Source of the DNA: a virus
DNA: 50,845 nucleotides
Virus record (IMG/VR): IMGVR_UViG_3300036854_000028
Location: 1 to 50,845 of that record
Reading direction: 5' to 3' (one strand)
Each line of letters starts with the position of its first letter. Within the stretch, counting starts at the first letter, position 1. Below are positions 32,997 to 46,955 of the stretch, in pieces. Under the pieces are notes generated by a model. That model was not told where the DNA came from. It was given only the letters and a program-made list of their open reading frames with translations, and did no database searches. A program made the position numbers and the translations under genes.

Positions 32997-33422
32997 ATGC
33001 CCCCTCGTGCCCGCCGCCTCGCCGCAGTCCCGGCTACCCAGCGTGAGCGTGCGCCGGACCTCCGCGATTCGGTACGCGCCGCGGTCGACGCGATGGACTG
33101 GCTGACGCCGACCGATGAGGCGATGAAGACCCTCGCCTTGCGCCAGGCCGAGGAGATCGAGAAGGCCATCGACCGGGCCGAGGAGCTGGCCGGCATTCTG
33201 CGTGATGCGGTCGGTCAGCCGGACATCTACAAGCGGGTCGAGAAGCTGGCCGCGATGTGCGAGGTCACCAAGACGGTCGGCTGGCTGGGTCCGCAGCTTC
33301 AGGGCGTGCTGCGTGACCTGGGTGGTACGCCCGCGGCTCGGGCCGCGATGAAGAAGGATAAGCCGGTAGGGAGTCGTCTTGCACAGCTCCGCGACGCTGC
33401 CGGCCAGCACGACGCCTCCTGA
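32997..33422 (+). CDS. Terminase small subunit (predicted)
   Basis: ATG 32997 gives 141 residues. It has a basic, disordered start, a helical central domain (WLTPTDEAMKTLALRQAEEI, then AIDRAEELAGILRD) and LGGTPAARAAMKKD. Position between the HNH gene and the large terminase, size, and helical content fit the DNA-recognition subunit that binds cos/pac. The HTH is not clear by eye. Confidence 0.72.
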   Translation: MPPRARRLAAVPATQRERAPDLRDSVRAAVDAMDWLTPTDEAMKTLALRQAEEIEKAIDRAEELAGILRDAVGQPDIYKRVEKLAAMCEVTKTVGWLGPQLQGVLRDLGGTPAARAAMKKDKPVGSRLAQLRDAAGQHDAS

Positions 33423-33572
33423 GTTAGCGTCACAAGAACGTACGAGGCAGGGCTTGAACCTTCGCGGTTGGCCCGGGATGTCGTGCCCTGCGCCAGCGGG
33501 GGGAATCGGTGAGGTGGCAGCTCACCAGCGGCGTCCCAGCCTCGTGCTCTCCGTCGAGCGGAGGCGGGGCGC

Positions 33573-45573: not shown

Positions 45574-45969
45574 ATGTCCGCTCTGACGATCACCCTGCGT
45601 GGGCAGGCCGCCGCCGAGCGGCTGATGGTTGACGCGTGCGTGGTCACCCGCGTATCCGGATCCACGGTCGACCCGGAGACCGGCGCTATCGTCCCCACCT
45701 TCGCGACGGTCTACAGCGGCAAGTGCAAGATTCAGATGCAGACTGCGGTCACCAACCCATCGGTTGTCGGTGAGGCGGCCGTGTTTGTCAGCGAGCCCCA
45801 CCTGCACGTGCCGATGTCGGCGACCGGACTTCAGCCCGATGATCGGGTGACCGTCACTGTATCGGTGCTCGACCCGGATCTGGTCGGCAAGGTTGGCCAC
45901 CTTCGGGGGCCGTGGGCCGAGACGTTCACGACGGCGAGGCGTCTACCGATGGCGTGGGTGTCGGGCTGA
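45574..45969 (+). CDS. Head-tail adaptor (DUF6093-like)
   Basis: ATG 45574 behind GAGGAGG gives 131 residues. VDACVVTRVSGSTVDPETGA, GKCKIQM, and VTVTVSVLDPDLVGKVGHLR with the end TTARRLPMAWV match head-closure/adaptor proteins of actinophages. It forms the neck between connector and tail. Confidence 0.68.
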   Translation: MSALTITLRGQAAAERLMVDACVVTRVSGSTVDPETGAIVPTFATVYSGKCKIQMQTAVTNPSVVGEAAVFVSEPHLHVPMSATGLQPDDRVTVTVSVLDPDLVGKVGHLRGPWAETFTTARRLPMAWVSG

Positions 45970-46397
45970 TGGGCGCCACGTCGACGGGCCTGACCGAACT
46001 GGTCCACGACCTGGACTACGCGCGGGACCACGCCGTCGAAGGCGCGAAGAAAGTCGTCGGCAAGGGCATGTCCGTGGCGAAGAAGCAGGCGCAGGCGACG
46101 ATCCGGGCGGCCAGTCACAGAGGCTACCTGCCGCACTACCCGCGCGCGATCGGCTATGAGGTCACCGCCGCCGGCACCATCATCACCGCGCGGATCGGCG
46201 CGGACCCGGCGAAGCTACAAGGCGGCCTCGGGAACATAATTGAATACGGATCCAGAAACTCGACGCCGATCCCGCACATTGGCCCTGCGGTTGAGGCCGA
46301 GCTACCGGTCATCACAAGGTACCTGGAAGATCTCGGCGAGAAGCTGATCGCCGGCCAGCCCGGACCGGACGGTCCCGTCGTGGACCCGGGCGGCTGA
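45969..46397 (+). CDS. Tail component, HK97 gp10-like
   Basis: ATG 45969 overlaps the adaptor stop (TGATG) and gives 142 residues. VEGAKKVVGKGMSVAKKQAQ followed by ATIRAASHRGYLPHYPRAIG and the end IIEYGSRNSTPIPHIGPAVE give the typical gp10-type neck/tail-completion plan, with the conserved xYGS....P.hP motif. The noncoding fold at 46400-46495 follows. Confidence 0.72.
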   Translation: MGATSTGLTELVHDLDYARDHAVEGAKKVVGKGMSVAKKQAQATIRAASHRGYLPHYPRAIGYEVTAAGTIITARIGADPAKLQGGLGNIIEYGSRNSTPIPHIGPAVEAELPVITRYLEDLGEKLIAGQPGPDGPVVDPGG

Positions 46398-46399
46398 GA

Positions 46400-46495
46400 T
46401 GGGAAGTGCCGGAGTTGAACCGGCTTGCTTCGTCTGGTTTGGGCCGCCGCCCAACTGGCCAGATGCTTACCCATGCGCTCCGCGTGAGCCTTCCC
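46400..46495 (-). ncRNA. tRNA-like fold lacking an anticodon loop
   Basis: Read on the minus strand, 46495 to 46400: GGGAAG at the 5' end pairs with CTTCCC near the 3' end. The T-arm is canonical: GCCGG-TTCAACT-CCGGC, followed by seven bases and A. Between them are a short hairpin (GCTC-ACGCG-GAGC) and a long arm (TCTGG...CCAGA enclosing TTGGGC-GGCG-GCCCAA). No 7-base anticodon loop with T33 is found, so it is not a working tRNA as read. It may be a tRNA-like RNA, a decayed tRNA, or an attachment-site remnant. Confidence 0.4.
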
Positions 46496-46514
46496 GAAGT
46501 TCACGGTACCAGCC

Positions 46515-46955
46515 GTGACCGACGGCCTGGACCAGGCGCTCGCGAACGCCGCCGTGACGCTGCTGCAAGCCGACGCCGGCCTGACCGTGTTCCGCGGCGG
46601 TGTACCGAACCCGACACCGAGCCCGCCGTACGTGGTGGTCCGCACCGCACCGCCGGACCGGCCCTCCGATGATCCTGACAACTCGATGGACGGCAAGTCC
46701 GGGGTGTGGGTGACGCACATCTACTGCTACTGCGTCGGCGGCGGCGGTGGCACCCCGGCGGATGCGGAGGTCGCCGCGATCGCGGTGGCGCAACGCGTCC
46801 GGACCCAGTTGCTCGACGCAAGGGTCACCATCGCGGGCCTGTCGTGTGGGCCGATCCGCTGGGACCAGTCGTTGCCGCCGCGGCGCTCCGACGAGATCAC
46901 CGGCGTCCCGATCGTCGAGGCCGTCGAGATATACCGCCTGCGGGCGACCAGCTAA
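46515..46955 (+). CDS. Tail terminator protein (predicted)
   Basis: GTG 46515 gives 146 residues. ALANAAVTLLQADAGLTVFR, PNPTPSPPYVVVRTAPPD, VTHIYCYCVGG and VAQRVRTQLLDARVTIAGLS fit the small alpha/beta tail-terminator fold (lambda gpU-like), which ends tail-tube polymerisation and joins it to the head. Its place before the tail tube gene agrees. Confidence 0.68.
   Translation: MTDGLDQALANAAVTLLQADAGLTVFRGGVPNPTPSPPYVVVRTAPPDRPSDDPDNSMDGKSGVWVTHIYCYCVGGGGGTPADAEVAAIAVAQRVRTQLLDARVTIAGLSCGPIRWDQSLPPRRSDEITGVPIVEAVEIYRLRATS

What the first reader, a model, noticed from the sequence alone, without database searches (positions are those of the whole stretch)
46400..46495. tRNA-like cloverleaf without an anticodon loop, antisense in the tail operon
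On the minus strand the sequence closes with GGGAAG/CTTCCC and has a canonical T-arm (GCCGG-TTCAACT-CCGGC) followed by seven acceptor bases and A. The D-arm position is a short hairpin, and the anticodon-arm position a long two-part helix with a GGCG tip. I could not find a 7-base loop with T33 in any register. A fold with a good T-arm and acceptor but no decoding loop may be a mimic that binds tRNA-modifying or tmRNA-related proteins, or a decayed tRNA.
Basis: seen in the sequence. Interest (0 to 1): 0.6.

Follow-up and report, generated by a model that had tools for sequence, protein, structure and literature searches.

The report
tRNA-like insert without a decoding loop
A short stretch in one soil phage genome has the amino-acid end and T-arm of a transfer RNA but nothing that could read a codon; it sits backwards between two tail genes that normally overlap, and is most likely a stray, non-working transfer-RNA gene, although similar oddities in other phages suggest that some such RNAs may have jobs of their own.

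Summary
On the minus strand, 46495-46401 forms a 6-pair acceptor with a G.A at the seventh pair, followed by A73, and an exact 5-bp T-arm with loop TTCAACT. No register gives an anticodon-like arm with T33. A descriptor of acceptor plus T-arm hits the window once and 10 Mb of simulated sequence never. The acceptor/T-loop pattern hits once in 200 Micromonosporaceae genomes, and that hit reads as an ordinary tRNA-Ser. So the top half is tRNA-derived, not chance. ARAGORN and Rfam call nothing.

The element fills most of a 117-nt insertion between a gp10-like gene and the next tail gene. In 35 of 41 distinct relatives these two genes overlap by a few bases, and none carries the element.

Two results count against an active RNA. 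No relative conserves it. The interior helices beat shuffles only on the plus (mRNA) strand (10/1000), not on the tRNA strand (330/1000). I therefore favour an atypical, non-decoding phage tRNA gene that landed antisense and is now a relic. An active tRNA mimic stays open: other phages carry tRNA-like RNAs without a decoding arm, including a pair that keeps a pseudoknot while its sequence changes.

The parts
46398..46514 (.). 117-nt lineage-specific insertion between the stop codon of the gp10-like gene and the GTG start of the next tail gene
   Evidence: 35 of 41 distinct relatives overlap by 1-11 nt here; and for the start codon
46400..46495 (-). tRNA-like element (acceptor, D-position hairpin, two-part helix, T-arm, A73)
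46489..46495 (-). 5' acceptor strand GGGAAGG (6 pairs, G.A at the seventh)
46477..46489 (-). D-position hairpin GCTC-ACGCG-GAGC (its first G is also acceptor base 7 in the other register); MFE prefers a competing pairing
46433..46463 (-). two-part helix: TCTGG/CCAGA (46463-46459 with 46437-46433) and TTGGGC/GCCCAA (46454-46449 with 46444-46439), GGCG tip; not above shuffles on this strand
46408..46424 (-). T-arm GCCGG-TTCAACT-CCGGC
46400..46407 (-). 3' acceptor strand ACTTCCC and discriminator A; no CCA encoded after it
46425..46488 (+). interior read on the mRNA strand: 8+6-bp rod with a 3-nt bulge and a 6-bp hairpin, helped by three wobble pairs that are A.C mismatches on the minus strand
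   Evidence: plus 10/1000 shuffles, minus 330/1000
45969..46397 (+). gp10-like tail gene (weak match to phrog_19109, function unknown) upstream of the insertion; the name gp10-like is my label
46515..46955 (+). downstream tail-operon gene (146 aa), normally coupled to the gp10-like gene by overlap

Best explanation
It is a tRNA-derived insertion: an atypical phage tRNA gene, unable to decode, that landed antisense exactly at the junction of two tail genes and is now most likely a relic. Shown: acceptor and T-arm are tRNA-like beyond chance; there is no decoding arm; the element fills most of a 117-nt insertion missing from relatives. Inferred: if transcribed on the minus strand, its acceptor/T minihelix would still be handled by tRNA end-processing enzymes (RNase P, CCA-adding enzyme), but the product would not enter decoding. 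Inferred: it persists because the plus-strand copy folds into a compact, closed structure in the tail mRNA, which shortens the effective distance between the gp10 stop and the next start.
For: Strict acceptor plus T-arm descriptor: window 1 hit, 0 in 10 Mb of simulated sequence; pattern once in 200 host-family genomes, itself tRNA-like by eye. No anticodon-like arm. The element is absent from 41 of 41 distinct relatives; 35 of 41 show a 1-11-nt gene overlap. No relative of the element by model in 24 further related viral records at E<=0.1 or in 14 more records or genomes, and no full-length DNA match in 250 Micromonosporaceae genomes, in phages or in plasmids. Signs of decay on the tRNA strand: G7.A66, short D loop, interior not better than shuffles (330/1000) while the plus strand is (10/1000). 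No promoter- or terminator-like site by consensus scan. Related phages almost never carry tRNAs: 2 of 71 loci, duplicates included.
Against: Decay should damage all helices alike, yet six acceptor pairs and five T-stem pairs are perfect. Rod-armed tRNA-like RNAs with strong interior folds occur in other phages (L127 343-434, L088 3170-3262), so a rod need not mean decay. The whole element folds better than shuffles on the minus strand (27/1000). The coupling idea for the mRNA strand is untested, and the plus-strand hairpin next to the GTG could equally hinder translation.
Confidence: 0.48

Rival explanations
1. Active non-decoding tRNA mimic: a small minus-strand RNA whose acceptor/T minihelix is matured like a tRNA and binds or distracts a tRNA-acting host factor (for example a tRNA-cleaving or tRNA-modifying enzyme), with the rod keeping it out of decoding.
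For: Intact top half. Non-decoding tRNA-like RNAs recur in phages: 18 of 56 descriptor hits not called by ARAGORN (window included) have no anticodon-like arm. Some have strong rods (L127 343-434 z -3.05, L088 3170-3262 z -3.09), one has what reads as its own promoter and terminator (L145), and one pair keeps a pseudoknot while its sequence changes (L114/L103).
Against: None of these is homologous to the window element. No conservation. Interior not above shuffles on the minus strand (330/1000). No promoter or terminator by consensus scan. It lies antisense to the tail operon.
Confidence: 0.3
2. mRNA-strand structural element: the plus-strand fold acts in the tail transcript (spacing, coupling or processing between gp10 and the next gene), and the tRNA resemblance of the other strand is a by-product or coincidence.
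For: Interior folds better than shuffles only on the plus strand (10/1000; strand difference reached by 11/1000 shuffles). The insertion breaks a coupling kept in 35 of 41 relatives. tRNA-like mRNA elements that regulate translation exist in principle (yjdF riboswitch, PMC9142559, title and start of abstract only).
Against: The descriptor found nothing in 10 Mb of simulated sequence, so coincidence for the T-loop, spacing and acceptor is unlikely. No conservation. The element as a whole shows no strand preference (592/1000).
Confidence: 0.13
3. Small non-autonomous mobile element (MITE-like) with GGGAAG ends, unrelated to tRNA.
For: Precise insertion with inverted ends at a junction that holds different inserts in three other relatives (L011, L012, L017).
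Against: No target-site duplication visible by eye; single copy in the record; no relative elsewhere; T-loop and acceptor spacing unexplained.
Confidence: 0.04
4. A normal or intron-containing tRNA that the programs missed.
For: Extended anticodon arms could be read as introns; some atypical phage tRNA-like genes have a canonical D-arm and an insert where the anticodon loop should be (L060, L127 15-128).
Against: No register with T33. Taking TCTGG/CCAGA as anticodon stem puts C at 32 and 33. ARAGORN with introns allowed finds nothing.
Confidence: 0.03

Closest known systems
Phage-encoded tRNA genes (Rfam RF00005 type)
   Same: Acceptor, T-arm with TTCRANY loop, discriminator A
   Different: No anticodon arm, mismatched seventh acceptor pair, no canonical D-arm, 96 nt, below any tRNA threshold
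tmRNA tRNA-like domain
   Same: Top half of a tRNA with a long helix instead of an anticodon arm (likeness recalled; PMC3985003 seen as listing and start of abstract)
   Different: Pair 3-70 is G-C, not the G.U that alanine charging needs (recalled); no credible tag reading frame (ARAGORN tmRNA calls only at lowered threshold); 96 nt
Rod-armed tRNA-like RNAs in GC-rich phage contigs (L127 343-434; L088 3170-3262)
   Same: Acceptor and T-arm with a two-part hairpin in place of the anticodon arm; L088 also has a GGCG tip
   Different: Unrelated in sequence; they lie among other tRNA genes and their rods are exceptional folds on the sense strand
Pseudoknotted tRNA-like RNAs of L114/L103 and L139/L075/L204
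   Same: GGGAAG acceptor and canonical T-arm, no normal decoding arm called, no other tRNA matches on the four contigs tested
   Different: Pseudoknot in the middle, sense orientation before genes; the window element has no such pseudoknot

Membership tests
canonical tRNA | 7-bp acceptor stem plus discriminator | tested here: inconclusive
   6 Watson-Crick pairs, G.A at the seventh, A73
canonical tRNA | T-arm of 5 bp with TTCRANY loop next to the acceptor | tested here: met
canonical tRNA | anticodon arm with 7-nt loop and T33 | tested here: not met
   all registers
canonical tRNA | recognised by tRNA models | tested here: not met
canonical tRNA | transcribed, end-matured and charged | not testable with these tools
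   needs RNA from infected cells
tmRNA | G3.U70 pair for alanine charging (recalled) | tested here: not met
   pair 3-70 is G-C
tmRNA | tag reading frame and tmRNA model match | tested here: not met
   no Rfam or ARAGORN tmRNA at normal thresholds; two overlapping low-threshold calls with implausible tags
pseudoknotted phage tRNA-like RNAs (as seen in L114/L103) | hairpin loop pairing with a downstream stretch | tested here: not met
   none with stem of 4 or more and 4 or more loop pairs
tRNA-based attachment site (attP) | 3' half of a host tRNA beside an integrase gene | tested here: inconclusive
   no full-length match in 250 host-family genomes (short pieces only); no integrase among the window proteins scanned, but not every ORF was scanned
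MITE or insertion sequence | target-site duplication and further copies | tested here: not met
   no duplication by eye, single copy in the record

The most novel reading that the evidence does not exclude
Phage genomes carry a loose, undescribed class of non-decoding tRNA-like RNAs that use the tRNA acceptor and T-arm as a scaffold and put an exchangeable centre (rod or pseudoknot) where the anticodon arm should be. The window element is a rod-armed member delivered as an antisense insertion, working as bait for host enzymes that recognise tRNA ends.
Probability: 0.22. Interest if true: 0.8.

Novelty: new variant of a known kind. Interest (0 to 1): 0.36.

Why it matters
By itself a stray tRNA-like insert is a curiosity, useful as a caution: half-tRNA signatures in phages are real but invisible to tRNA finders. 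If active, it would be a tRNA mimic without the loop that anticodon nucleases cut, and would give a direct handle on which host factors phages target through tRNA ends. The side finding, homologous phage RNAs that keep acceptor, T-arm and a pseudoknot while the centre is rewritten, is the stronger reason to look at this class.

Tried and rejected
Normal tRNA in a missed register, tmRNA, Rfam families, intron in the anticodon loop (T33 missing; ARAGORN with introns), pseudoknot, chance, MITE. Homologue searches without result: exact 24-mer of T-arm plus acceptor in viral contigs; blastn to phages and plasmids (only short pieces); 19-mer of the T-arm, 13 contigs, tRNAs or sites without a good acceptor partner; covariance model of the single sequence over related loci, related records, 37 of the 120 pattern-hit loci plus L193 and L194 (best 31 bits, L145, aligned over the shared ends) and 11 sources. 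The model has one distinct sequence, so its structure is my own choice. The 120 loci are a capped, acceptor-matched sample and give no frequency for phages in general. My first thought that the rod proved selection on the tRNA strand was dropped. An idea that upstream hairpins link the window element to L114 and L139 was dropped: the window hairpin overlaps the old gene start. Literature: ten searches showed no description of phage tRNA-like RNAs without an anticodon arm; the library is open-access only. Read as passages: PMC9004378 (phage tmRNAs) and PMC7953290.

Full report
WHAT IS THERE. The minus strand of 46495-46400 reads as the top half of a tRNA: GGGAAGG against ACTTCCC with six Watson-Crick pairs and a G.A at the seventh, a discriminator A, and an exact T-arm GCCGG-TTCAACT-CCGGC directly before the 3' acceptor strand. 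Between them lie a short hairpin and a two-part helix with a GGCG tip. I tested every register for an anticodon-like arm (at least 4 of 5 pairs, 7-nt loop, T33): none. The same test finds one in 608 of 630 ARAGORN-called phage tRNAs, so it is sensitive. ARAGORN finds no tRNA or tmRNA at normal settings, also with introns or mitochondrial models; at lowered thresholds it returns many mutually overlapping calls, which I disregard. Rfam gives nothing at gathering and a partial tRNA-Sec match at 14.2 bits with relaxed thresholds.

IS IT CHANCE. A loose descriptor with wobbles expects 0.23 hits per window, so the bare resemblance is not overwhelming. The strict one (T-arm 5 of 5 pairs with at least 4 Watson-Crick, G53-C61, TTCRANY; six Watson-Crick acceptor pairs or seven pairs with at most one wobble; 66-120 nt) gave 0 hits in 10 Mb of Markov-1 sequence with the window's composition, and 1 in the window, the element itself. 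The acceptor/T-loop pattern was sought in 200 Micromonosporaceae genomes, the family of Micromonospora tarensis, which carries a relative of the capsid gene: one hit in one genome, none for the reversed pattern, and that hit reads as tRNA-Ser(CGA) by eye. Both criteria were set after seeing the element, which inflates significance, but the margin is wide.

WHERE IT SITS. The record is a 50,845-base virus record with terminase, portal, protease, capsid and tail genes on the plus strand. The element lies antisense between a gp10-like gene (ends 46397) and a 146-aa gene (starts GTG 46515). I measured the same junction in 55 loci with both genes, 41 distinct by sequence. In 35 of 41 the two genes overlap by 1 to 11 nt, usually 4. 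Three have inserts: L011, 603 nt, whose reading frame looks like an HNH endonuclease; L017, 325 nt, with a small antisense frame that looks like a winged-helix protein; L012, 88 nt. For three (L043, L067, L068) the automatic stop call was not usable. None has the window element (blastn). So the window carries a private 117-nt insertion at a junction that accepts inserts. Only 2 of 71 related loci (duplicates included) have any ARAGORN tRNA. One of them, L060, has another unrecognised 98-nt tRNA-like stretch, antisense between two structural genes, whose interior folds worse than shuffles (z 1.68), which looks like decay.

WHICH STRAND. The T-loop consensus points to the minus strand. The interior does not: its 64 nt fold at -21.1 kcal/mol on the minus strand (330 of 1000 dinucleotide shuffles do as well) and -26.8 on the plus strand (10 of 1000); a strand difference as large occurs in 11 of 1000 shuffles (confirming). 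Three pairs are wobbles on the plus strand and A.C mismatches on the minus strand. The whole 95-nt element beats shuffles on both strands (plus 11/1000, minus 27/1000), and the full insertion hardly does (53/1000 and 78/1000). No promoter- or terminator-like site was found nearby, although the scan covers only one promoter type. These results speak against an actively maintained minus-strand RNA and are the main reason why I rank a relic first.

HOW IT MOST LIKELY WORKS. Shown: tRNA-derived top half; no decoding arm; private antisense insertion at a normally overlapping gene junction; interior fold better on the mRNA strand. Inferred: an atypical phage tRNA gene was inserted; it cannot decode; if transcribed it could still be matured at its ends; in the tail mRNA its complement folds into a closed structure that keeps the gp10 stop and the next start within about 25 nt of single strand, which may be why it is tolerated. 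I found no Shine-Dalgarno-like stretch at a usual distance before GTG 46515 by eye, so how this gene starts is open.

RELATED THINGS ELSEWHERE. The pattern GGGAAG..GTTCRANYC..CTTCCC in viral contigs gave a capped 120 loci. In the listing 31 rows, by my count, have no ARAGORN call. The strict descriptor over these loci (1.08 Mb) gave 630 hits with and 55 without a call; with the window, 18 of 56 uncalled hits lack any anticodon-like arm. Several resemble the window element in plan but not in sequence: L127 343-434 and L088 3170-3262 have a two-part hairpin with exceptional interior folds (z -3.05 and -3.09), inside arrays of odd tRNA genes. By the lenient arm test L127 343-434 is not among the 18 without an arm, so its lack of a decoding loop is less clear than in the window. 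L113 8542-8626 (z -2.00) lies 6 nt after a frame that reads like RtcB; it too passes the lenient arm test. Others are less convincing (L127 2543-2641 z -0.97; L084 z 0.17; L081 z 0.62).

A SIDE FINDING. L114 and L103 carry GGGAAG tRNA-like RNAs in which a hairpin starting at nt 21 has a loop (nt 29) that pairs with nt 50-51. Both helices are complete in both (8+8 and 8+6 pairs) although the sequences differ; such a pseudoknot arises in 4 of 2000 and 7 of 2000 shuffles. The contigs have no tRNA match, and Rfam has no family for the regions. L139 shows the same layout (nt 20, 27, 49). Its neighbours L075 and L204 are about 95% identical over kilobases but have a wholly different centre; L075 has a possible kissing pair at nt 28/49. 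Further scans found one more member of the L139 type (L204) and none of the L114 type. ARAGORN did call L103, with an undetermined isotype and a 4-base anticodon, and L114, L103, L139 and L075 are not among the 18 armless ones, so the absence of a decoding arm there rests on the pseudoknot, which uses the same bases, not on the arm test. This is a small sample, chosen by the window's acceptor, and it says nothing direct about the window element, which has no such pseudoknot. It does suggest that tRNA-like RNAs with another centre can be conserved in phages, and it keeps the mimic reading alive.

KNOWN KINDS. By plan it is a phage tRNA gene that fails the anticodon test. It works, at best, like the tRNA-like half of tmRNA, without the G3.U70 pair (recalled) or a tag frame. 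Ten literature searches (open-access library; numbered under Tried and rejected) showed nothing on phage tRNA-like RNAs without an anticodon arm; a listed review of tRNA introns (PMC4090602, listing and abstract start) and the tRNA-like yjdF riboswitch (PMC9142559, listing and abstract start) are the nearest. Phages with tmRNA are described (PMC9004378, passages).

VERDICT. Real, tRNA-derived, not a normal tRNA. Relic 0.48, active mimic 0.30, mRNA element 0.13, others small. Interest 0.36 for the window element; the class behind it would deserve more.

Noticed in passing
L114 4371-4465 (+) and L103 9896-9984 (-): Homologous GGGAAG tRNA-like RNAs with the same pseudoknot register but different sequence in both helices; no Rfam family, no tRNA match in the contigs.
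   Followed up: partly
L139 4843-4930, L075 2744-2833, L204 9530-9619 (+): tRNA-like RNA with constant ends but a wholly replaced centre between contigs about 95% identical over kilobases; the upstream hairpin changes together with its complement.
   Followed up: partly
L145 2762-2856 (-), same RNA in L184 7220-7314 (+): tRNA-like RNA with what reads by eye as a TTGACA/TATATT promoter upstream and an intrinsic terminator downstream; no tRNA on the contigs above threshold.
   Followed up: partly
L113 8542-8626 (+): tRNA-like RNA with a long central helix 6 nt after a frame that reads like an RtcB RNA ligase and before a tRNA-Pro and a GIY-YIG-like frame.
   Followed up: no
L088 1400-3430 (-) and L127 1-3070 (+): Arrays of odd tRNA genes in GC-rich phage contigs, several with long rods or 2- and 4-base anticodon calls.
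   Followed up: partly
L060 959-1055 (-): 98-nt tRNA-like stretch with a canonical D-arm and inserted anticodon region, antisense between structural genes of a distant relative; interior folds worse than shuffles.
   Followed up: partly
L011 13666-14268, L017 13950-14274, L012 14631-14718: The same gp10/tail junction holds an HNH-like frame, an antisense winged-helix-like frame and a short insert in other phages: an insertion-prone junction.
   Followed up: partly
L083 1509-1601 (-), L112 763-856 (-), L175 1786-1876 (+): Tyr-like RNAs (GTA) whose anticodon arm follows the acceptor almost directly and whose further helices come after it: an unusual arm order.
   Followed up: no
L193 2501-2523 (Microbacterium phage A3Wally): Unannotated T-arm plus 3' acceptor end just after a tRNA-Val, without an obvious 5' half.
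   Followed up: no
window 33355-33463 (-), approximate: A weak second tRNA-like match of the loose descriptor (4 T-stem pairs), close to the chance expectation.
   Followed up: no
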